Shown piece by piece: positions 47,166 through 58,028 of a DNA stretch of 64,000 nt. The position numbers and the translations under genes were made by a program. This DNA is from Lachnospiraceae bacterium (GTDB taxonomy: Bacteria > Bacillota > Clostridia > Lachnospirales > Lachnospiraceae), in contig JAUNAJ010000011.1 in NCBI GenBank assembly GCA_030527645.1, positions 17,821-81,820 on the forward strand, written 5' to 3'. Position 1 is the first letter of the stretch, and every line of letters begins with the position of its first letter. The notes beneath the pieces were generated by a model. That model worked only from the letters and a program-made list of their open reading frames with translations, was not told the origin of the DNA and did no database searches.

Positions 47166-49517
47166 ATGAAAAAAAGACCTTCTCCTTTTCCGCCACAGAA
47201 AGGACAAAGGGGAAATCCATCGGCAAAGACAGCTGCAATCGCACTGTCCCTGATGCTTGCAGCATCTTCTGCAGCCGTCTATGCCGAGGAAACGGAGCCT
47301 GCGGATGCAGCTTACCGGTCACTGACTGTTTCTTCTGCTGAGGAATTTGCGCCGGACTCTGTATCCGGTGATTCAGCTGCTGCGACGGAGGATTTTTCGC
47401 AGGAAGGCACATCCGATCAGATCCTGCCGACGGACACGGGATCAGAGGATGACGGTTCAGAATCTGATCAGACCTCCGTTGAGCACACTGATTCAGAGGA
47501 CCTGTTGGAGGACAGTCATTCGGATGAGACCGAAGAGATCCATTCTCCTGAGACCGTTGCAGAACATGCTGACACCGATTCAGAGAATGAACCTCAGGAA
47601 ATTACCGAAGAAACAGCAGAGGAAACAATTTCCATATCTGTTGAAGACGGAAAAAGGATTCTTACTGTTCGGCCAGAAAGCAGCTACAGAACCGTTCGAT
47701 ATGCAGTCTGGAGCAAAACCAACGGTCAGGATGATATCATCTGGCATCGTCTGAAAAAGAATGAAGAAGGAAACTGGACCGGAGCAGTCGATCTTTCCTC
47801 ACTCAAGCACAGCGGAGATGCATATATCCATATTTATGCGGACGAAAAAACCTTCATCGGAGACCAGGTGATCACGGTCGATGAAGAGGAGCTGTCCGTA
47901 AACAGGATTACCATTTCCGGCACCGGCGGAACTCGTACGGTAAATGTCAGGACAACAGAGGAACTTGCAGATCTGAGAGCGGCAGTCTGGAGTGCAAAGG
48001 GTGGTCAGGATGATATCAAATGGTACTCTCTTCGTAAGGAAGGCGAAAACTGGATCGGATTTATTGATTTTAAAAATCTGAAGCATGCCGGTACCTGCTA
48101 CGTACATTTCTATACAGGAAAGAATACCTTTGTCGGTTCAGAAACCTTTACTGCCTCTGAAGATGAGCTCCCGCAGGACCAGTTCTCCGTTACAGGAAAC
48201 GGAAACACCAGAAGTGCACAGGCGGTCATCAACAGCTCCGCAGGGTCAGTAAGAGTTGCTATCTGGAGCAAGACAAAGGTTCAGGACGATCTGAAATGGT
48301 ATACATTGAAAAAACAGAGCGACGGAAGCTGGTCCGGTACGGTGAATTGCAGAATGATCAAACATTCCGGCAGCTGCTATGCACATTTTTATGCGGATAA
48401 GAATACTTTGATCGGAACTGCATCGTTTACTGTTTCAGATGATGATATCAACGGAAATCAGGTATCTGTTACCGGCAGCGGAACCTCAAGAAAGGCAGTA
48501 GCTGAAATGGGGGAATCCGTTTCAGGAATATCTGTTGCAGTGTGGAGTGCATCGGGTGGACAGGATGATCTCAAATGGTACACTCTGAAAAAGGGATCCG
48601 ACAATACCTGGACTGCATCGATCGATATTGCAATGCTCGCACATTCCGGAACCTGCTTTGCACACTTCTACGCAGCAGGAAATAGATTTATCGGAGACGC
48701 AGTTTTTTCGGTAACGGCGGATCAGATTGCTAAAAAATCTATTTCTGTAACGGATCAGAATCTGACGAAAAAAGTCACGGTAACGTCACCCGGCAGATCC
48801 GATGTGACAATTGCCGTTTGGAGCGCAACCGGCGGCCAGGATGATATTAGCTGGTACACACTCAGAGCAGTGAACTCCGGTACCTGGAGTATCAGTGTAC
48901 CGCTCTACCGTTTAAAACACAGCGGTACTGTACACATCCATGCGTACGCTAACGGAAATTCTCAGTTCCTTGGAGGCATTACCACAACAGTCTCTGCTTC
49001 TCAGATCTCCTCTTCCGCATCCATATCAGGATCCGGATCCAACATTGATTTTATTCAATGGGCAATGAACATAGCAGCCAATGATTCGATCGGTTACGGG
49101 CATACCTATCCAAAAACGATCAGCTGTGCAGGTCTTGTCGGTCTGGGACTGACCTACTGTGGTTACGGTGACTTTATCAAGAATGATCCCCTTGGCTGGG
49201 GCTATATTGATCTCGGAGCAGAATATGAAAATGAGCTGATCAACGGAGTGGGCTGCTCCGTTCGTTCAGGAGCCTGGACTGCTTCACGCGTCAATGAGCT
49301 GAAGCCCGGCGACATTCTGTACTATTATCACAATATAAACAGCAATCATGTAGCAATCTACATCGGAAACGGAATGACCGTGGAAGCCAGAGGTCCTTAC
49401 GGGGTAAATGATTACGACTCCAGCGGTGCGGAGGTTGCAGTTTACCACTGGACGGATGCATTGGTATACCAGAAGGTATTCCGGATTCCTGAGTCTAAGC
49501 TTCATTATACTTCCTGA
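47166..49517 (+). CDS. Secreted protein with five Bsp-like repeats and a C-terminal NlpC/P60-type domain
   Basis: 783 residues. A signal peptide ends near AVYA-EE (residue 41). An acidic Ser/Thr/Glu/Asp-rich linker runs to about 150. Five repeats of about 88 residues follow (about 155-625), each with AVWS-x-GQDDIxWYxL and LKHSGxxxxHxYA, matching GBS Bsp-like repeats. The C-terminal domain has Cys654 (SCAGLV) and His728 (NHVAIYIGNG), the NlpC/P60-type pair, so it is probably an active wall hydrolase or amidase. GGAAGG precedes the ATG. A 29-bp REP-like hairpin follows. Confidence 0.88.
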   Translation: MKKRPSPFPPQKGQRGNPSAKTAAIALSLMLAASSAAVYAEETEPADAAYRSLTVSSAEEFAPDSVSGDSAAATEDFSQEGTSDQILPTDTGSEDDGSESDQTSVEHTDSEDLLEDSHSDETEEIHSPETVAEHADTDSENEPQEITEETAEETISISVEDGKRILTVRPESSYRTVRYAVWSKTNGQDDIIWHRLKKNEEGNWTGAVDLSSLKHSGDAYIHIYADEKTFIGDQVITVDEEELSVNRITISGTGGTRTVNVRTTEELADLRAAVWSAKGGQDDIKWYSLRKEGENWIGFIDFKNLKHAGTCYVHFYTGKNTFVGSETFTASEDELPQDQFSVTGNGNTRSAQAVINSSAGSVRVAIWSKTKVQDDLKWYTLKKQSDGSWSGTVNCRMIKHSGSCYAHFYADKNTLIGTASFTVSDDDINGNQVSVTGSGTSRKAVAEMGESVSGISVAVWSASGGQDDLKWYTLKKGSDNTWTASIDIAMLAHSGTCFAHFYAAGNRFIGDAVFSVTADQIAKKSISVTDQNLTKKVTVTSPGRSDVTIAVWSATGGQDDISWYTLRAVNSGTWSISVPLYRLKHSGTVHIHAYANGNSQFLGGITTTVSASQISSSASISGSGSNIDFIQWAMNIAANDSIGYGHTYPKTISCAGLVGLGLTYCGYGDFIKNDPLGWGYIDLGAEYENELINGVGCSVRSGAWTASRVNELKPGDILYYYHNINSNHVAIYIGNGMTVEARGPYGVNDYDSSGAEVAVYHWTDALVYQKVFRIPESKLHYTS

Positions 49518-49586: not shown

Positions 49587-51035
49587 TCAGAAAATTTCCA
49601 CTCCGTATACATCCTTCAGTTCCTGCACCTTCGCAAAGTACACTTCATTCTTTCTCTGCTCTGCCATCTGCTGAATGATCTGGTTCTTCACCTCTTCGAA
49701 GGGCTGCTCTCCTGCCTCCTTCTTATCCTCGACCTTGATCAGGTGATAGCCGAACTGGGTCTGTACCGGTTCTGTTACCTGTCCGATCTCAGCTGCAAAT
49801 GCTGCCTCGTCAAACTCCTGTACCATCTGGCCGTGTCCGAAGTAGCCAAGGCTTCCGCCGTCTGCCTTGGACGGACAGGTGGAATGCTCTTTTGCTGCGT
49901 CTTCAAAGCTGATCTCACCGGAAAGGATTTTCTCACGGATCTCGTCAGCCTTCTCCCGGGAATCAACCAGGATATGTCTTGCATGTACCTGCTCGGGAGT
50001 TCTGAACTGAGAAACAGCAACATCATAGTATTTCTTCGCTTCTTCATCAGAGATCTCAATGCTGTCGAACAGCTCCTGGATCATCTGCTGTGCCAGCATC
50101 TGCTCCTCGTAGTCACGTACGGATGCAAAGAAATCAGCCTCCTGATCCTTGCCCTTTTCTCTTGCAGAGCGGGTCAGAACCATATAGGCAAGCTTCTGCT
50201 CACGGACAGCATTTCTTCCCTCCTCTGTCTGCAGGTAGGACTGGTGCTGTGCTGGATACTGGTCGATCAGACGGTCAACAGCAGACTCATCTACCTGAAT
50301 GTCGTCATATTTTCCCTTCAGAACCTCGATCCTGGTTACCAGAACATCGTTCTGCTTCTGCTGAGTCAGCTGAGCGCGGATCTGATCTGTGACCTCCTCA
50401 AAGGGAGCAATGGATGCAAGCTTTTTATCGATCACCTTGATCAGATGATAGCCAAACTGTGTCTGTACAGGCTCTGTTACCTGATTCAGCTCAGCCGCAA
50501 ATGCTGCCTCATCGAATTCAGGAACCATCATGCCCCGTCCGAAGAAGCCGAGTTCCCCTCCCTGAGGCGCGGAAGGGCAGGTGGAATGCGCAATAGCAGC
50601 ATCCTCGAAGGAAATTTCCCCGGCAAGGATCTGTTCACGAATCTTCCGGATCTCCTCAAGAGATTCCATCAGAATATGTCTTGCATTGATCTGCTCCTCT
50701 GTCTTGAAATTCTCTTTTCCTTCCTCATAAAACTTCCGGATCTCATCGTCTGTAACACTGACGGAAGCAAATGCTTCATTGATCTCTCCCTGGGAAAGCA
50801 GCTGCTCTTCAAAATCAGCCTTCATGCTCTCCTGCTCCGGTGTCAGGGCACCACCCTTTTTCTTCATCGCAAGTGCCATAACACAGTTGGCGATCTTCTG
50901 ATTCAGAATCCTCTCCCGTCCGTCCGGATTGTCCAGCTGAGCCCTTTGCTCCTCCGGAAAGGATACGATCACGCGGTCAATATCATTAGTGGTGATCTGA
51001 GTGTCACCGATTTTTGCAAGAATTTTGTTTTCCAT
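49587..51035 (-). CDS. Tandemly duplicated parvulin-type peptidyl-prolyl isomerase
   Basis: 482 residues in two homologous halves (about 1-245 and 246-482). Each half has an N-terminal helical SurA/PrsA-like segment and a parvulin domain: ARHILMES...STCPSAPQGGELGFFGRG and ARHILVDS...STCPSKADGGSLGYFGHG. Both keep the active-site Cys, Phe and His. There is no signal peptide or lipobox, so it is likely cytoplasmic, unlike PrsA. The promoter is TTGACA-18-TTAATA at 51104-51075, with AAGGAG before the ATG. Confidence 0.93.
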   Translation of the reverse strand: MENKILAKIGDTQITTNDIDRVIVSFPEEQRAQLDNPDGRERILNQKIANCVMALAMKKKGGALTPEQESMKADFEEQLLSQGEINEAFASVSVTDDEIRKFYEEGKENFKTEEQINARHILMESLEEIRKIREQILAGEISFEDAAIAHSTCPSAPQGGELGFFGRGMMVPEFDEAAFAAELNQVTEPVQTQFGYHLIKVIDKKLASIAPFEEVTDQIRAQLTQQKQNDVLVTRIEVLKGKYDDIQVDESAVDRLIDQYPAQHQSYLQTEEGRNAVREQKLAYMVLTRSAREKGKDQEADFFASVRDYEEQMLAQQMIQELFDSIEISDEEAKKYYDVAVSQFRTPEQVHARHILVDSREKADEIREKILSGEISFEDAAKEHSTCPSKADGGSLGYFGHGQMVQEFDEAAFAAEIGQVTEPVQTQFGYHLIKVEDKKEAGEQPFEEVKNQIIQQMAEQRKNEVYFAKVQELKDVYGVEIF

Positions 51036-51189: not shown

Positions 51190-51218
51190 TTGACATACTA
51201 GGAATATAGTGCTACAAT
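51190..51218 (+). promoter_or_regulatory. Promoter of the amidotransferase / glutamate-cysteine ligase operon
   Basis: TTGACA (51190-51195), 17-base spacer, TACAAT (51213-51218). Leader of about 85 bases to the ATG at 51310, which is preceded by GGGGGAG. Confidence 0.85.
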
Positions 51219-51309: not shown

Positions 51310-52092
51310 ATGTGTGAATTATTTGCGCTGGATACAAAATATCCTGTCAATGCAACAGAATATCTGAGAGATTTTTTCTCTCATTCTACGGAAAATCCCC
51401 ACGGCTGGGGACTGGCACAGCCATCGGAGCAGGGGTGTATTCTTGAAAAGGAGCCGATGATGGCAGCAAAAAGCCAGTATCTGAAAGCACGGCTCTCAGG
51501 TGAATTCCGCTCTTCGCTTCTTATGGCACACATTCGCTATGCTACTATCGGAAGTGAGGAATACAATAATTGCCATCCATTTACGGGAACCGACAACACC
51601 GGAAGGCAGTGGACGCTAATGCACAACGGAACCATCTTCCATTATTCTGCGCTGAACAGGTTTCTTCATACCCAGCAGGGACGTACGGATTCGGAACGCA
51701 TTTTTCTGCATTTGCTGGATCAGCTGAATCAATCGAACCGCAGAAAAAGGAAACTGTCCAGAGAGGAACGCTTCGAGGTGGTGGATTCTGTTGTTCGCAA
51801 AATGGCAAAGGGAAACAAGCTGAACCTTGTGATCTACGATGGCGAGATCCTCTATGTGCATACGAACGAAAAACACACTCTTTTTACTCTGGAAACGGAT
51901 GAGGGCAGACTCTTTGCAACAAAGCCTCTTCTGCATTCCACAGTCGAATCCAAATGGAAGCCTGTACCGCTCATGCAGGTGCTGGCATATAACAATGGAC
52001 GACTGATCAGAGAGGGACAGCGCCATTCACATGATTATGTATACGATCCAAAGCATTATGAGGAATTGTATCTCGCATACTCAGAACTGTGA
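51310..52092 (+). CDS. Class II glutamine amidotransferase (YafJ/EgtC/Dug3-like)
   Basis: N-terminal-nucleophile amidotransferase domain alone, 260 residues, no synthase domain attached. After Met removal the catalytic Cys2 would be the N-terminus (MCELFAL, as in E. coli YafJ). The Gln site residues are in MAHIRYATIG (Arg75) and LMHNGTIF; NPHGWGLA is also conserved. Stand-alone members include EgtC and yeast Dug3, which cleave gamma-glutamyl bonds. The two genes downstream make gamma-glutamyl bonds, so a gamma-glutamyl hydrolase role is a reasonable inference. Confidence 0.88.
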   Translation: MCELFALDTKYPVNATEYLRDFFSHSTENPHGWGLAQPSEQGCILEKEPMMAAKSQYLKARLSGEFRSSLLMAHIRYATIGSEEYNNCHPFTGTDNTGRQWTLMHNGTIFHYSALNRFLHTQQGRTDSERIFLHLLDQLNQSNRRKRKLSREERFEVVDSVVRKMAKGNKLNLVIYDGEILYVHTNEKHTLFTLETDEGRLFATKPLLHSTVESKWKPVPLMQVLAYNNGRLIREGQRHSHDYVYDPKHYEELYLAYSEL

Positions 52093-52235
52093 AGAGGTGA
52101 TCATTCGATCTGACCGGCAGGCCCGGCTGCGGAAGTGCAGGCTTCCGGATATGTTAATGCCGAACGAAAGGGAAGAAAGAATGGTCCAATGAAAAGTTTC
52201 ATTAAGAAGTAATTCTATTTACCGGAGAACAAACA

Positions 52236-53630
52236 ATGATTGATATACTAACTGTCAGACAGGCTCTGATACATAAATACATAGAACCAACAAAAAAGAC
52301 CCGCAGCAATTTTATCGGTGTCGAGATCGAACTGCCCATTGTCAACCTTGATCGGAAAGCGGTTGATTTCGAACAGATTCAGCGGATTACTGCTGAATTT
52401 ATGGACTATTTTCAATTTGCAGCCATGGGCAGGGATGATACTGGATTCGTTTATGCGGCACAGAACGAGGAAACGGGTGACATTCTCTCCTACGACTGCT
52501 CTTATAATAACATTGAGTTCTCCTTCGGTAAGGAAAAGGATCTGAATCGGATCCAGGACCGGTTTTCTGCCTACTACAGATTTATGGAGAATAAATTTTC
52601 AGAAATTCATTATGTAATGACAGGCATGGGGGTGAATCCATACCGAGCCTATAACAATAATGTTCCCATTGAGAACGGAAGGTACCGTATGCTGTTCCAT
52701 CATCTGGGAACCTATGAAGCCTACCGCAATCTGCCCATGTATTTTCACAGCTATCCCACATACGGGACCTTCTCCAGCGCTTCACAGGTGCAGCTGGATG
52801 TTTCATATGAAAAACTGATTCAGACTATTCAAACATTTAACAAACTGGAGCCAATCACCGGACTTCTTTTTTCTAATTCCGTATTTCCCGAGGAATCCGA
52901 GGAGCTTCTCTGTGTCAGAGATCTGTTCTGGGAAAACAGTACCCATGGCATCAATCCACACAATATCGGAATGTTTGACTGTCAGCTTGAAACCATTGAT
53001 GATCTGCTCGCATACATTGAATCCTGCAGCATGTACTGCGTGGAGCGAGGGGATAAATACATTAACTTTTCACCAATCCCTGTGGCTGATTATTTTTCTG
53101 CCGACGAGATCAAAGGTGAGTATTACCAGGACGGATGTTACCATACGATCGCCTTTCAGCCGGATCTGTCGGATCTGGCATACCTGCGAACCTTCAAGTT
53201 TGAGGATCTTACCTTCCGGGGTACCATTGAGCACAGGAGCTGCTGCACACAGCCGATTTCTGATGTGATGACCGTTGCTGCGTACCACCTTGGACTCAAT
53301 ATGGAATTAGAAGCTCTCACACAGCTTCTTGACACTGATTCGGTTCTGTATCATCATGGATACACCGCTTCCGAGCTGCGAAAACTGCTGATCCGTAGAA
53401 ATCTGCCTGCATTCATTGATGAAGATCAGCTCTATAAGCTCACCGAACAGGTTCTTGCCCTGGCGGAGTCCGGGCTGAAAAAACGGGGACTCAATGAGGA
53501 ACAGTTTCTTGCTCCGCTCTTTCAGAGAGCTGCTGATCGATCCAATCCCGCAAAGCATGCTTTAAGCAGACTGAATGCAGGTGACTCGATTGAATCAGTA
53601 ATTACGGAGTATTCGAAATTAATGGTATAG
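52236..53630 (+). CDS. Glutamate-cysteine ligase family 2 (GCS2/EgtA-like)
   Basis: 464-residue ATP-dependent carboxylate-amine ligase of the GCS2 family (plant, EgtA and YbdK type). Seen: FIGVEIELPIVNL at 26-38, ATP/Glu-site-like YDCSYNNIEFSFG, and FRGTIEHRSCCTQPISD near the C-terminal third. Its partner acceptor (Cys or another amine) cannot be read from sequence. GGAG precedes the ATG at eight bases. No terminator in the 143-base gap from the amidotransferase, and the next gene begins five bases after its stop. Confidence 0.85.
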   Translation: MIDILTVRQALIHKYIEPTKKTRSNFIGVEIELPIVNLDRKAVDFEQIQRITAEFMDYFQFAAMGRDDTGFVYAAQNEETGDILSYDCSYNNIEFSFGKEKDLNRIQDRFSAYYRFMENKFSEIHYVMTGMGVNPYRAYNNNVPIENGRYRMLFHHLGTYEAYRNLPMYFHSYPTYGTFSSASQVQLDVSYEKLIQTIQTFNKLEPITGLLFSNSVFPEESEELLCVRDLFWENSTHGINPHNIGMFDCQLETIDDLLAYIESCSMYCVERGDKYINFSPIPVADYFSADEIKGEYYQDGCYHTIAFQPDLSDLAYLRTFKFEDLTFRGTIEHRSCCTQPISDVMTVAAYHLGLNMELEALTQLLDTDSVLYHHGYTASELRKLLIRRNLPAFIDEDQLYKLTEQVLALAESGLKKRGLNEEQFLAPLFQRAADRSNPAKHALSRLNAGDSIESVITEYSKLMV

Positions 53631-53635
53631 AAAAT

Positions 53636-54964
53636 ATGAAATTTACGAAAAAACAAATATTCAGATTCGCGGAACACGGCGAATTCGGTCTGGAAAAGGA
53701 ATCCCTTCGTATTACAAAGGATGGATTTATAGCCGAGACAGATCACCCATTTCCCGGAGATCCCAAAAGAGACAGGGACTTCTTCGAGGGACAATTGGAA
53801 ATGATCACAGGTGTGAGCAATTCTGTAGAGGAATTGTTTCACGATCTGACTAAGCTTCATAATGAAACTACTGCTGCGCTGGAGCATTCCCGGTTCCCCG
53901 GATCTACGGCTGCTCATGTTCGCTCCGGCACTGCAGAATCTGTCCGTCAGGCTGCCGATGAGCATCATTCACCGGAATATCTCTGGCCCTTTTCCAATCC
54001 TCCTTATATAGATGATCTGGACAGCATCCGGATCGCAGCATTCACAGGAAAGGATGCCTGGAAAACAGAATACCGAAAACATCTGGAACAGGTCTACGGG
54101 AAGAAACGAATGCTCTTTTCAGGTATTCACATGAACTTCTCCTTCTCATCTGCATATCTTGAAGAGTACGGTTCTTGTTCTGTTTCAGAATTCCAAAATG
54201 CATTATATCTGGATCTGACGAAGAAGATCCTGAAATACAGCTGGCTGATCGTCTATCTCACAGCAGCAAGCCCTCTTTTGGACGGCTCTTATGTAGATCG
54301 CGACGATCTGGGAAAGGATATAGTTACCGACTATGCTTCCATTCGAACCGGCCAGTATGGCTATTGGAATCATTTCACACCGGTACTGGATTTTTCATCC
54401 GTGGAGGCTTATGCTGACAGCATTGAATCCTATGTGGAAAACGGCATGCTGATGGCATCCTCAGAGCTGTATTACCCCGTACGGTTAAAGCCAAGAGGCG
54501 CCAATTCCACGGAGCATCTGAAAGAAGCAGGGGCAAATCACATTGAGCTTCGCATGCTGGATCTGAATCCGCTGTCTCCCGTTGGCATTGATCAAAGAGA
54601 TGTTTCCTTTATCTATCTTCTGCTGCTGTATCTGATGTCCGAGGAGAGTCCTGTTATGAATGAACAGGAACAGTTAACTGCTCTTGCGAATCTGAAACAT
54701 GCTGCGAAATTGGAGGCAAACAGCAAGTCTGTCATTGAGGCTGCGGAAGAGATTCTAAACAGGATGAAGGAGTTCTTTATTCATAGTGAATGTTCGGACT
54801 CGGAAACACCGAATATTCTTCGTCATGCATCGGAAATCCTGGATTATCAGCTTCAAAAGGTGATTGATCCGGAACAGCGGTATGCAAAACAGATCGTGCG
54901 GCAATTCGGAGAAGGATATGTAGAGAAGGGATTGAAACTGATCGGAATTAGAAGTAATGGATAG
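53636..54964 (+). CDS. gshA: Glutamate-cysteine ligase, GshA/GshF N-terminal type
   Basis: 442-residue gamma-glutamylcysteine synthetase of the gamma-proteobacterial/GshF type: GEFGLEKESLRI at 16-27, DFFEGQLEMITGV, MLFSGIHMNFSFS and HIELRMLDLNPLSP. It lacks the ATP-grasp glutathione synthetase half found in GshF, so gamma-Glu-Cys rather than glutathione may be the product unless a separate synthetase exists. Not homologous in detail to the preceding GCS2 gene. The short spacing and weak ribosome binding site suggest coupled translation. Confidence 0.92.
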   Translation: MKFTKKQIFRFAEHGEFGLEKESLRITKDGFIAETDHPFPGDPKRDRDFFEGQLEMITGVSNSVEELFHDLTKLHNETTAALEHSRFPGSTAAHVRSGTAESVRQAADEHHSPEYLWPFSNPPYIDDLDSIRIAAFTGKDAWKTEYRKHLEQVYGKKRMLFSGIHMNFSFSSAYLEEYGSCSVSEFQNALYLDLTKKILKYSWLIVYLTAASPLLDGSYVDRDDLGKDIVTDYASIRTGQYGYWNHFTPVLDFSSVEAYADSIESYVENGMLMASSELYYPVRLKPRGANSTEHLKEAGANHIELRMLDLNPLSPVGIDQRDVSFIYLLLLYLMSEESPVMNEQEQLTALANLKHAAKLEANSKSVIEAAEEILNRMKEFFIHSECSDSETPNILRHASEILDYQLQKVIDPEQRYAKQIVRQFGEGYVEKGLKLIGIRSNG

Positions 54965-54970
54965 AGAAAG

Positions 54971-55005
54971 AGCGTGGAAATCTGCTGTGATTTCCACGCT
55001 TTTAT
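54971..55005 (+). terminator. Rho-independent terminator after gshA
   Basis: Stem AGCGTGGAAATC/GATTTCCACGCT followed by TTTTAT, ten bases past the gshA stop. Confidence 0.9.
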
Positions 55006-55072: not shown

Positions 55073-55672
55073 TTATCTATCCATCTTACGAGCGGTCTCG
55101 ACGATAATATCTGCACAGAACTCTTCACCAAGTGTACTGCTGTTCAGTACAAGATCATAATTCTCTGCCGCTCCCCACTCTCTTTCCGTGTTAAAGCTGT
55201 AGTAAGAAGCACGTCTGGTATCCTGTCTTTTTAAGAGCTTTTCAATGGGAGTTCTTGTCTCAGGATATTTCTCATGAATATTTTTTACTCTCGTGTCCAT
55301 ATCAGCGTGAATAAATACATTCAGAGATTCAATACTTTCCTCGTTCAGTATTGCATCCGCACATCGTCCGATTATAACACAGGGACCTTTTTTAGCCTCC
55401 TCCAGAATAATCTTCCGCTGGATATGATACATATCACTCTGATCATCCTCAAGATCCAAACCATTATAATATTTGGAATTTGTAAAGAGATCATACTGCA
55501 TCAGGAACTGACCCTTGCGTTCTGACTCATATGGTGAAACTCCGGAATTATCCTTATCATCATCAATTACAAACTTATCAATGATCGGAATATTTAACTC
55601 TTTGGCAACCAGTTCACCGATCTTGTGGCCGTTGCTTCCTGCTTCTCTACTGATTGTTATTACCGGCAGCAT
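55073..55672 (-). CDS. Cytidylate kinase-like family protein (paralogue 1)
   Basis: 199 residues from ATG at 55672, chosen because AGGAGGG lies just upstream; the open frame extends 57 codons further but that part carries promoter signals. Cytidylate-kinase-like fold: ITISREAGSNGHKIGELVAKEL (modified P-loop region), KGPCVIIGRCAD, and an Arg-rich lid with KLLKRQDTRRASYY. Family members are widespread in Clostridia with no proven substrate. Promoter with a Rex-like box over the -10. Confidence 0.88.
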   Translation of the reverse strand: MLPVITISREAGSNGHKIGELVAKELNIPIIDKFVIDDDKDNSGVSPYESERKGQFLMQYDLFTNSKYYNGLDLEDDQSDMYHIQRKIILEEAKKGPCVIIGRCADAILNEESIESLNVFIHADMDTRVKNIHEKYPETRTPIEKLLKRQDTRRASYYSFNTEREWGAAENYDLVLNSSTLGEEFCADIIVETARKMDR

Positions 55673-55806
55673 CTTACACCCTCCTAATACTAAACCTGCA
55701 CCTTCTGTCATCGTACACGGGAAATCTTCCCGTTCGCATACAGAATTTGTTACAGAATTTCTAAGCCCATTACTGTTGAAAACTGAAATGAAACAGAAAT
55801 TCTTAC

Positions 55807-55843
55807 TTGTTAACATTCTAACATAGTGATTAGTAAGATGCAA
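55807..55843 (-). promoter_or_regulatory. Promoter of kinase-like gene 1 with Rex-like operator over the -10
   Basis: Minus strand: TTGCAT (55843-55838), 17-base spacer, TAGAAT (55820-55815). The box ATGTTAGAATGTTAACAA (55824-55807) matches TTGTTAA-N4-TTAACAA at 12 of 14 defined positions and covers the -10. The leader to the ATG is about 135 bases. Confidence 0.7.
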
Positions 55844-55878
55844 GACTACGCACCTGTATCCTTATGTCTTGCTATCAG

Positions 55879-56391
55879 TTAAGCGGCGATCTTCTCTGCC
55901 ATCTTCTTTGCAGCTGCTTCGATCAGGTCTGCACATAACTCAGATCCAAATGCACCAATGTTCAGTGCAAGATCATATTTTCCGGAGTTATTCTTCTCTT
56001 TCTCGTTGAGACTTTCATTATTAGAATAAACAAAAATATCTAATGCAGGAATGCCTTCCTCAGCCATGATGTCTCGGGCACATTTTCCTACAACGATGCA
56101 TGGACCTTTTTTCACTTCATCCATAACGATCAGATGGCGGATATGATCCAGGTCACTCTGTCCGGATCCTAAAATCATTCCATTGTAGAAATTGGTTTTT
56201 GTGAACACATCATACTGCGTCTGGAACTCCCCAGATTTTTTAGAATTAAAAGAAGTAAGTCCGTTATGTTCACGAATTTCGTCAACCAGGAACTTATCAA
56301 CTACAGGCATCTCCAGCTTCTGAGCAACTAATTCAACAATCTTGTCAACGTTGATTCCTTTTTCTTTTGCGATCGTAATAATTGGCATCAT
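55879..56391 (-). CDS. Cytidylate kinase-like family protein, eroded (paralogue 2)
   Basis: 170 residues, about 30 shorter than its neighbour. The two align along most of their length (IITIAKEKG, KGPCIVVGKCARDIM, GSELCADLIEAAAKKM), but this one has lost the GSNG phosphate-loop equivalent (reads GINV) and the Arg-rich lid. It is therefore unlikely to be a kinase and may bind ligand or its paralogue. AAGGAGG precedes the ATG, so it appears expressed rather than dead. Confidence 0.85.
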   Translation of the reverse strand: MMPIITIAKEKGINVDKIVELVAQKLEMPVVDKFLVDEIREHNGLTSFNSKKSGEFQTQYDVFTKTNFYNGMILGSGQSDLDHIRHLIVMDEVKKGPCIVVGKCARDIMAEEGIPALDIFVYSNNESLNEKEKNNSGKYDLALNIGAFGSELCADLIEAAAKKMAEKIAA

Positions 56392-57128: not shown

Positions 57129-58028
57129 ATGACAATTGATGAAATGCGTCGAATCAAAAAGGAAAAGGGCTACTCCTACCAGATGTTATCCGATCTGTCC
57201 GGAGTGCCGGTTGGCACCATGCAGAAAATCTTCAGGGGTGAAACAGAAAGTCCCCGATACGAAACCTTACATGCACTTGAGAAAGCGCTGTCGGGCAATG
57301 TGAATCAGCAAAGCCCTAACGCAGTATATGAAAGCAGCTCCGACTATGATACAGCAGATTGCGGGAACTTCGGAAACTCTCCCAGTAACGTCTCTGAAGT
57401 TCGAGGGAACTCTCCCAGTAACATCTCTGAAGTTCGTGAAAGTGCTCCGCACTATTGTGAAACTCTTCCTAAAAAACAGCAGGGTGAATATACGATGGAT
57501 GATTTCTATGCACTGCCGGAGGATCAGCGCTGGGAATTGATCGATGGATATCTGTTTGAAATGAATTCCCCCACAAGTTATCACCAGTTGATTGCCGGTG
57601 AAGTGTACAGGCAGATTGCAAACTTTATTATTCATCATGACGGAGACTGCACCCCCTTCATCTATCCTATGGATGTGCAGCTGGACAGAGATAACAGAAC
57701 CATGGTGGAGCCGGATGTGATCATAATGTGTGATCCGGATCAGATCACCGCCAGAAATCTGGTTGGCGCTCCCGATTTTGTTTTGGAGGTACTCTCTCCC
57801 AGTACAAGAAAACGTGATCTGAAAATCAAGCTTTCGAAGTATGAGCAAGCCGGTGTGCGGGAATACTGGGTCGTGGATCCTTATCAGCGGGTAGTGCTCT
57901 TCTATTTCTTTGAGAGCAGCGAATATATGACGATCTACCCCATCGATGCTGAGATTCCGGTAAATATCTATGAAGGTGAATTGAAGATCAGTTTGACAAG
58001 AGTATTGAAATGGCTCCCGGAAAAATAA
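57129..58028 (+). CDS. XRE-type HTH fused to a Uma2-family (PD-(D/E)XK) domain
   Basis: 299 residues. Residues 1-55 form a helix-turn-helix (GYSYQMLSDLSGVPVGTMQKI). A Ser/Asn-rich linker (60-115) has an 11-residue tandem duplication. Residues 118-296 are a Uma2/DUF820 domain with the nuclease-like set Asp196 (VEPDVII), Glu220 (VLEVLSPS) and Lys232/234 (KIKLSKYEQAGVREYWVVDP). Uma2 proteins are usually stand-alone and their role is unclear; the fusion suggests DNA targeting or autoregulation. AAAGGAGG precedes the ATG. A REP-like hairpin follows. Confidence 0.88.
   Translation: MTIDEMRRIKKEKGYSYQMLSDLSGVPVGTMQKIFRGETESPRYETLHALEKALSGNVNQQSPNAVYESSSDYDTADCGNFGNSPSNVSEVRGNSPSNISEVRESAPHYCETLPKKQQGEYTMDDFYALPEDQRWELIDGYLFEMNSPTSYHQLIAGEVYRQIANFIIHHDGDCTPFIYPMDVQLDRDNRTMVEPDVIIMCDPDQITARNLVGAPDFVLEVLSPSTRKRDLKIKLSKYEQAGVREYWVVDPYQRVVLFYFFESSEYMTIYPIDAEIPVNIYEGELKISLTRVLKWLPEK
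57375..57436. repeat. 33-base tandem duplication in the HTH-Uma2 linker
   Basis: Copy one 57375-57407, copy two 57408-57436 (partial), one mismatch. Keeps the reading frame. Confidence 0.85.

What the first reader, a model, noticed from the sequence alone, without database searches (positions are those of the whole stretch)
51310..54964. Operon with one gamma-glutamyl-bond breaker and two unrelated gamma-glutamyl-bond makers
A stand-alone class II amidotransferase (YafJ/EgtC/Dug3 type, Cys2 present) is followed by a GCS2/EgtA-like ligase and, five bases later, by a GshA/GshF-type ligase without a glutathione synthetase half. All sit behind one strong promoter and before one strong terminator. 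EgtA and EgtC use exactly this add-then-remove gamma-glutamyl logic in ergothioneine synthesis, and Dug3 removes it from glutathione. No other ergothioneine gene is here. I infer a gamma-glutamyl-protected thiol or amine pathway, or a gamma-Glu-Cys cycle, in an anaerobe.
Basis: partly seen in the sequence, partly recalled or inferred. Interest (0 to 1): 0.72.

Follow-up and report, generated by a model that had tools for sequence, protein, structure and literature searches.

The report
Three-gene gamma-glutamyl-cysteine cycle of anaerobes
Three neighbouring genes, found together in many gut and rumen bacteria and in some of them fused in pairs into single proteins, likely make and take apart a gamma-glutamyl form of cysteine, which would give bacteria that appear to lack glutathione their own way to store and protect sulfur.

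Summary
They form a conserved module: all three occur in 64 of 80 related loci (55 of 60 with at least 2.5 kb before O2), usually as O3-O1-O2; the window's order is rarer. Of 84 protein-database hits, 57 are natural fusions: O3::O2 (28), O2::O3 (16), O1::O2 (13), with five changes of arrangement on my tree. In 393 genomes of the class, all 9 with strong O2 have O1 and a GshA-type ligase; in six others O1 sits beside an EgtA/plant-type ligase. Cysteine-synthesis-type genes lie in 23 of 80 loci, against 1 of 21 distant-GCS2 loci. Searches of the window's genome found no glutathione synthetase and no EgtD. Best reading: a gamma-Glu-Cys synthesis-and-release cycle (O3 makes it, O1 hydrolyses it), with O2 adding a second, unknown gamma-glutamyl step. 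Substrates and product are untested.

The parts
51190..51218 (+). promoter-like site TTGACA-17-TACAAT with TG before the second hexamer
   Evidence: 11 of 12 consensus matches; a consensus match only
51310..52092 (+). O1: stand-alone class II (Ntn) amidohydrolase/amidotransferase, 260 aa; Cys2, Arg76, Asn106, Gly107, Asp127
52236..53630 (+). O2: divergent plant-type glutamate-cysteine-ligase-fold ligase, 464 aa; acceptor unknown
53636..54964 (+). O3: GshA/GshF-type glutamate-cysteine ligase without the glutathione synthetase half, 442 aa
   Evidence: PF04262 201 bits; 3ln7 GshAB 2.3e-71 with the family profile; E22, H165, N167, E304, R306 in 62 of 62 rows
54971..55000 (.). 12-pair hairpin between O3 and the convergent gene; possible terminator, listed by the scan on the minus strand only

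Best explanation
The operon encodes an Ntn-type amidohydrolase and two ligases of the glutamate-cysteine-ligase superfamily, which likely work together as a gamma-glutamyl-cysteine cycle: cysteine would be capped with a gamma-glutamyl group by ATP-driven ligation and released again by the amidohydrolase. Inferred steps: O3 joins Glu and Cys to gamma-Glu-Cys; O1 uses Cys2 to cleave the gamma-glutamyl bond (of gamma-Glu-Cys or of O2's product), giving back Glu and Cys; O2 performs a second, different gamma-glutamyl ligation, most likely on gamma-Glu-Cys or a cysteine derivative. Shown here: the three genes form a conserved module, their catalytic-type residues are intact, they fuse in pairs in nature, and O1 also stands next to other glutamate-cysteine-type ligases. 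Without a detectable glutathione synthetase, the cycle would buffer or protect cysteine in a fermentative anaerobe.
For: (1) Conserved set: all three genes in 64 of 80 loci, 55 of 60 with at least 2.5 kb before O2. (2) Fusions: of 84 database hits to the O2 part of a fusion, 28 are O3::O2, 16 O2::O3, 13 O1::O2 and 27 O2 alone, some being fragments. A tree of 57 O2 domains, 20 from fusions, needs five changes between separate and fused forms, and so do 200 of 200 bootstrap trees. (3) Co-occurrence in 393 class genomes: the 9 genomes with strong O2 all have strong O1 (20 of 393 do) and a GshA-type ligase (37 of 393 do) (3e-13 and 2e-10 if genomes were independent, which they are not). (4) O1 beside other ligases: in six genomes without strong O2 it lies next to an EgtA/plant-type ligase on the same strand, and L157 has O3-O1 without O2; 19 of the 20 O1 genomes hold one of the ligase types searched. 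(5) Cysteine context: a cysteine synthase, PF01053-type PLP enzyme or serine acetyltransferase relative in 23 of 80 loci (mean 9.9 kb) against 1 of 21 distant-GCS2 loci (mean 11.8 kb); an Rrf2 regulator directly upstream in 11 of 80. (6) No GshB and no GshF synthetase half found in the window's genome. (7) The class II GATase Dug3, with Dug2, degrades gamma-Glu-Met and glutathione in yeast (PMC7617739: abstract and passages seen).
Against: No substrate was tested. Most glutamate-cysteine-type ligases of the class stand without O1: 24 of 37 genomes with a GshA-type ligase and all 37 genomes with a weaker match to the EgtA/plant-type profile lack strong O1. The profile of that ligase was built from five of the six O1 neighbours, so their strong scores are partly by construction. 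O3 has Met159 in 62 of 62 rows where three solved ligases (3ln7, 3ln6, E. coli 1v4g) have Gln, so its acceptor pocket may differ (role of this residue recalled, not tested). O2's acceptor is unknown, and a second active ligase fused to O3 is more than a simple cycle needs. G007 has O1-O2 without any GshA-type match; G074 and G165 also lack one. G060 has O1 with none of the ligases searched; G198, G488 and G499 have O3 without strong O1; O2 stands without O1 nearby in L016, L040 and G538. The window's own neighbours (peptidyl-prolyl isomerase, cytidylate-kinase-like genes) say nothing about cysteine. Fusion of a class II amidotransferase domain to a synthetase also fits ammonia delivery.
Confidence: 0.5

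Rival explanations
1. Glutamine-dependent amidation: O1 is a glutaminase whose ammonia is passed to O2, and O2 amidates a carboxylate of gamma-Glu-Cys made by O3, giving a gamma-Glu-Cys amide or a similar product.
Against: O1 also stands next to an EgtA/plant-type ligase without O2 (6 genomes) and next to O3 without O2 (L157), where no ammonia acceptor is evident. Best fold matches of O1 are the hydrolase EgtC and 1te5, though PurF is only 1.4 Z behind. O2's closest fold is glutamate-cysteine ligase, which takes an amino acid, not ammonia.
Confidence: 0.17
2. Two-step pathway to an undescribed thiol: O3 makes gamma-Glu-Cys and O2 adds another residue (for example a second gamma-Glu), so that the pair replaces a GshF-like enzyme; O1 recycles the product.
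For: O2 and O3 are fused in both orders (28 and 16 proteins, two changes each on the tree), as the two ligase steps of glutathione synthesis are fused in GshF. 15 of 18 O2 genomes have a GshA-type ligase. O2 has diverged from plant-type ligases. Synthesis and hydrolysis domains are joined in trypanothione synthetase-amidase (PMC2784880, abstract in the search listing), as in O1::O2.
Against: No product is known. G007 has O1-O2 without a detectable GshA-type ligase. The two-gene ligase-O1 form does without O2.
Confidence: 0.23
3. A hidden ergothioneine-like pathway: gamma-Glu-Cys is only a sulfur donor or a protecting group for chemistry done by genes elsewhere, and O1 removes the gamma-glutamyl group at the end, as EgtC does.
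Against: No EgtD in 18 of 18 genomes (control without a genome over the cut-off). No fourth gene in more than 18 of 80 loci. O2 has no EgtA match and O1 is far below the EgtC cut-off. Two ligases are one more than this needs.
Confidence: 0.1

Closest known systems
EgtA and EgtC of ergothioneine synthesis
   Same: a glutamate-cysteine ligase and a class II Ntn hydrolase that add and remove a gamma-glutamyl group; O1 has the EgtC fold
   Different: below the EgtC cut-off and without an EgtA match; no EgtD found; two ligases instead of one
GshF (bifunctional glutathione synthetase) and GshA
   Same: O3 is homologous to the ligase half; O3::O2 fusions have a ligase-plus-ligase layout like GshF
   Different: the second half is a plant-type ligase fold, not an ATP-grasp glutathione synthetase; no GshB or GshF synthetase half found in the window's genome
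Yeast DUG pathway (Dug2-Dug3)
   Same: a class II amidotransferase protein used to break gamma-glutamyl bonds of sulfur peptides (PMC7617739, abstract and passages)
   Different: here the gene lies with ligases that likely make the bond; a Dug2 partner was not looked for
Trypanothione and glutathionylspermidine synthetase-amidases
   Same: opposing ligase and amidase domains on one chain, as in O1::O2 (abstract of PMC2784880 in the listing)
   Different: unrelated enzyme families (their CHAP amidase and ATP-grasp-like synthetase are recalled), and the substrates differ
Plant glutamate-cysteine ligase (2gwc) and GCS2 family
   Different: 18-19% identity; the window's O2 is not detected by PF04107; three Cys invariant in 80 of 80 rows

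Membership tests
Ergothioneine EgtC (TIGR03442) | score over the equivalog cut-off | tested here: not met
   O1 56.9 bits against 218.65
Ergothioneine EgtA (TIGR03444) | match of O2 to the EgtA model | tested here: not met
   no EgtA match listed for O2 at E up to 1
Ergothioneine pathway | EgtD methyltransferase in the genome | tested here: inconclusive
   TIGR03438 found in 0 of 18 genomes, the window's own included, but no control genome was over the cut-off
Glutathione synthesis | glutathione synthetase (GshB or GshF second half) in the window's genome | tested here: not met
   PF02955: none in G000 while the E. coli control rings. NF002688: none over the cut-off; in G000 only O3 and a weak ATP-grasp stretch on contig C12, which is a D-alanine--D-alanine ligase. 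Genome 97.8% complete
GshA/GshF-type glutamate-cysteine ligase (O3) | PF04262 and conserved catalytic-type residues | tested here: met
   200.9 bits against 27; E22, H165, N167, E304, R306 in 62 of 62 rows; residue roles recalled
GshA/GshF-type glutamate-cysteine ligase (O3) | makes gamma-Glu-Cys | not testable with these tools
   needs an enzyme assay; Met159 differs from the Gln of three solved ligases
Plant-type glutamate-cysteine ligase / GCS2 (O2) | fold | tested here: met
Plant-type glutamate-cysteine ligase / GCS2 (O2) | family score over the cut-off | tested here: not met
   no PF04107 match; TIGR01436 50.2 bits against 463
Class II (Ntn) glutamine amidotransferase/hydrolase (O1) | N-terminal Cys after Met and gamma-glutamyl pocket residues | tested here: met
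   C2, R76, G107, D127 in 76 of 76 and N106 in 75 of 76 rows; assignment of pocket roles recalled
Ammonia-delivering glutamine amidotransferase | glutaminase coupled to a synthetase through an ammonia channel | not testable with these tools
   O1::O2 fusions exist; a channel cannot be seen in single-chain models
Yeast Dug2-Dug3 complex | Dug2 partner | not tested
   not searched

The most novel reading that the evidence does not exclude
O3 and O2 are the two ligase steps of an undescribed low-molecular-weight thiol (for example gamma-Glu-gamma-Glu-Cys or another gamma-Glu-Cys conjugate) that takes the place of glutathione in many gut and rumen anaerobes, and O1 is its dedicated amidase: a complete three-enzyme thiol system whose parts have fused in three arrangements.
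Probability: 0.3. Interest if true: 0.82.

Novelty: new variant of a known kind. Interest (0 to 1): 0.6.

Why it matters
Which small thiol fermentative gut and rumen Clostridia use in place of glutathione is, to my knowledge (recalled), unsettled. A three-gene module that recurs across several families, fuses in three arrangements, often sits with cysteine-synthesis-type genes and occurs where no glutathione synthetase was found makes the question testable with three recombinant proteins and a named strain (Eubacterium oxidoreducens DSM 3217 carries the three genes, L044). It would also give functions to widespread genes now named only 'glutamylcysteine synthetase' and 'class II glutamine amidotransferase' (names), and would show add-and-remove gamma-glutamyl logic outside ergothioneine synthesis.

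Tried and rejected
Glutathione pathway: rejected for the window's genome; four other O2 genomes (G007, G165, G422, G369) do have PF02955 matches above its cut-off, which may be other ATP-grasp ligases and were not followed up. Ergothioneine: not supported. Universal fourth gene: none; the commonest neighbour cluster is in 18 of 80 loci. A 206-aa C39-like protein next to O1/O2 in L031, L036 and L093, with an M20 peptidase in two of them, looked like a Dug-type partner; a case-control search found it in 2 of 18 O2 genomes and 7 of 60 others (one of the 7 a broken copy), so it is not linked in general. Distant GCS2 relatives (21 of the 30 class genomes that match the O2 profile at E up to 0.001; L136-L156) have no O1 or O3 within the stretches fetched and served as a control. 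Glutaredoxin (PF00462) is in 16 of 18 O2 genomes but also in 13 of 14 control genomes, so it tells nothing. RNA families: none in the window at gathering thresholds. A GTG-start frame of 31 codons between O1 and O2 was read by eye; its conservation was not tested. Literature: ten searches showed no paper on this gene set in their listings; the library lacks most subscription journals, so this is no proof that none is in print.

Limits: the 80 loci are the best of 355 relatives, mostly metagenome assemblies, many cut by contig ends. Co-occurrence probabilities ignore shared ancestry. 'Strong' means the gap in the E-value lists: O2 up to 2.6e-155 (9 of 30 matches; next 5.7e-72), O1 up to 1.3e-83 (20 of 130; next 3.2e-11), EgtA/plant-type ligase up to 1.3e-181 (6 of 43; next 6.1e-84). 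In one search, 4 O1, 5 O2 and 5 O3 rows (fragments or a fusion) were dropped before counting, and loci L001-L006 were left out as duplicates. In the tree 20 of 59 fusion rows were used (59 counts my own translations P0121 and P0122, which duplicate P0123 and P0182). Counts of changes on a tree cannot tell gain from loss. Most neighbour names were given by eye; those checked by family search are.
Full report

The module is conserved. A scan of genome contigs with an O2 alignment gave 355 relatives, of which the best 80 were fetched. All three genes were detected in 64 of 80, O1 without O3 in 11, neither in 5, and O3 without O1 in none; of the 60 loci with at least 2.5 kb before O2, 55 have all three. 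Many of the gaps lie at contig ends. Order among the 64 is O3-O1-O2 in 62 and O1-O2-O3 in 2, so the window has a minority order. Other genomes show O2-O3-O1 (L092, L130, L131) and O1 followed by a ligase-ligase fusion (L091, L133). A conserved set in changing order speaks for a joint function, not only for inherited neighbourhood.

Fusions. L091 encodes O3::O2 and L133 encodes O2::O3 in single open frames. A protein search with the O2 part of the first fusion, at fusion length, gave 84 hits. By profile they are 28 O3::O2, 16 O2::O3, 13 O1::O2 (711-739 aa, names including Erysipelotrichaceae and Oscillospiraceae) and 27 O2 alone; some of the ligase-ligase fusions are fragments. On a maximum-likelihood tree of 57 O2 domains (37 separate, 20 from fusions) the forms need five changes: two for O3::O2, two for O2::O3, one for O1::O2, and five again in 200 of 200 bootstrap trees. 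If separate genes are the older state, the parts of this module have been joined five times in this sample.

Co-occurrence. In 393 genomes of the class, searched with each profile, 30 match O2 at E up to 0.001, 9 of them strongly (the other 21 are the distant GCS2 group); 130 match O1, 20 strongly; 38 match O3, 37 of them well, of which 12 are of the O3 kind and the rest other GshA or GshF ligases. All 9 strong-O2 genomes have strong O1 and a GshA-type ligase. A different ligase, matching PF04107 and TIGR01436 (E 1e-38 to 2e-43 in the five tested) and more weakly the EgtA model, sits next to O1 on the same strand in six genomes without strong O2 (L159, L160, L163-L166, the L163 copy broken by stops). 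A profile built from five of these found 43 of 393 genomes, these six far above the rest; the other 37 have no strong O1. Of the 20 O1 genomes, 9 have O2, 6 this ligase, 2 O3 only (adjacent in L157, on another contig in G200), 2 a GshF-length ligase (G523, G564) and 1 none of these (G060). Conversely 24 of the 37 GshA-type genomes have no strong O1, as would be expected of glutathione makers, and three O3-kind genomes (G198, G488, G499) lack it too. So O1 hardly occurs without such a ligase, while such ligases often occur without O1. Across the 18 O2 genomes (9 from the class sample, 9 more from the family sample, where 10 of 200 had O2, the window's own among them), all have O1 and 15 of 18 have a GshA-type ligase match; G007, G074 and G165 lack one, G165's locus ending at its contig end.

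Cysteine context. Recurrent neighbours in the 80 loci are cysteine synthase, PF01053-type PLP enzymes, serine acetyltransferase relatives, Rrf2 regulators (the two tested have CymR and IscR as best named relatives, both below cut-off), ThiF-like proteins and ABC transporters. At one BLAST threshold, CysK, the PLP enzyme or the acetyltransferase is present in 23 of 80 loci, in 4 of 7 O1-plus-ligase loci (L157, L159, L160, L163-L166) and in 1 of 21 distant-GCS2 loci. An Rrf2 gene lies directly upstream on the same strand in 11 of 80. In L164 a run on one strand holds a cystathionine-lyase/synthase-type enzyme, a cysteine-synthase-like gene (just below cut-off), a MetN-like ATPase, a MetI permease (over cut-off), the ligase and O1. 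The window itself has no such neighbour.

What is missing. In the window's genome (97.8% complete) no GshB was found while the E. coli control rang, and no GshF synthetase half; the one weak ATP-grasp stretch is a D-alanine--D-alanine ligase. EgtD was found in none of 18 O2 genomes, but that control set had no genome over the cut-off.

Active sites. C2, R76, G107 and D127 of O1 are in 76 of 76 rows and N106 in 75; E30, E32, E94, Q184, Q186, E332 and R334 of O2 in 80 of 80; E22, H165, N167, E304 and R306 of O3 in 62 of 62 (residue roles recalled). Both ligases therefore look active. Two departures matter. O3 has Met159 in 62 of 62 where E. coli GshA and two GshF ligase halves have Gln, and O2 has three Cys invariant in 80 of 80 (C88, C268, C337) and a fourth, C226, in 79. 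They leave room for unusual acceptors.

Mechanism. The simplest reading that fits all forms (ligase+O1, O3+O1, trio, fusions) is a gamma-Glu-Cys cycle: a glutamate-cysteine ligase caps cysteine, and O1 takes the cap off. Class II amidotransferase proteins are known to do the second step: yeast Dug2-Dug3 acts on gamma-Glu-Met and glutathione (PMC7617739, abstract and passages seen), and EgtC acts in ergothioneine synthesis (recalled, and PDB titles). O2 is then an extra ligation; its fusion to O3 in both orders suggests that it follows or precedes O3 on the same molecule. The fusion of O1 to O2 resembles trypanothione synthetase-amidase (abstract of PMC2784880 in the listing), but it equally resembles glutamine-dependent synthetases, which is the main rival on O1's role. 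Shown: conservation, fusions, co-occurrence, predicted fold, intact residues, context. Inferred: every reaction.

Verdict. Each enzyme type is known; the combination of two unlike ligases with an amidohydrolase, fused in three arrangements and tied to cysteine genes, I did not find described in ten searches of an incomplete library (listings only, except passages of PMC7617739 and the abstract of PMC6154287).

Noticed in passing
L065:7346-11692; partly similar runs in L020 and L022: Next to the trio lie NadA, a serine-acetyltransferase-like protein, a HydE-type radical SAM protein (567 bits, cut-off 255), a RDAC-family 77-aa protein, a 71-aa Cys-rich protein without any family match, a ThiS-like protein (below cut-off) and a ThiF-family protein in one run: a possible sulfur-assimilation or thiol operon with unassigned small proteins.
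   Followed up: partly
L031:2665-4425, L093:9753-11501, L036:7407-8027: A conserved 206-aa C39-like protein (66% identity to the first row), in two of three loci beside an M20 peptidase, sits with O1/O2. It is not linked to O2 across genomes (2 of 18 against 7 of 60).
   Followed up: yes
window 52097-52192: The gap between O1 and O2 holds a GTG-start frame of 31 codons and a 7-codon ATG frame overlapping its stop; conservation unknown.
   Followed up: no
window 55073-56391 (-): Two tandem cytidylate-kinase-like (PF13189) genes, the second shorter and weaker, convergent with the operon.
   Followed up: no
window 47166-49517: A large, likely secreted protein with five GBS_Bsp-like repeats and a C-terminal NlpC/P60 domain.
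   Followed up: no
window 57129-58028: An HTH_3 domain fused to a Uma2 putative-nuclease domain, with a short repeated stretch between them.
   Followed up: no
window 49587-51035 (-): A peptidyl-prolyl isomerase gene with two rotamase domains, next to and divergent from the operon.
   Followed up: no
L136-L156: A distant GCS2 group of about 400-500 aa in several other families of the class, without O1 or O3 nearby; function unassigned.
   Followed up: partly
G296:C20:52776-53903: A match to the EgtA/plant-type ligase profile lies inside an 886-aa open frame, so another fusion partner may exist.
   Followed up: no
G103:C23 (L174), G559:C4 (L172): A second GshA-type (O3-like) gene away from the trio in trio genomes, so O3 may be duplicated in some species.
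   Followed up: no
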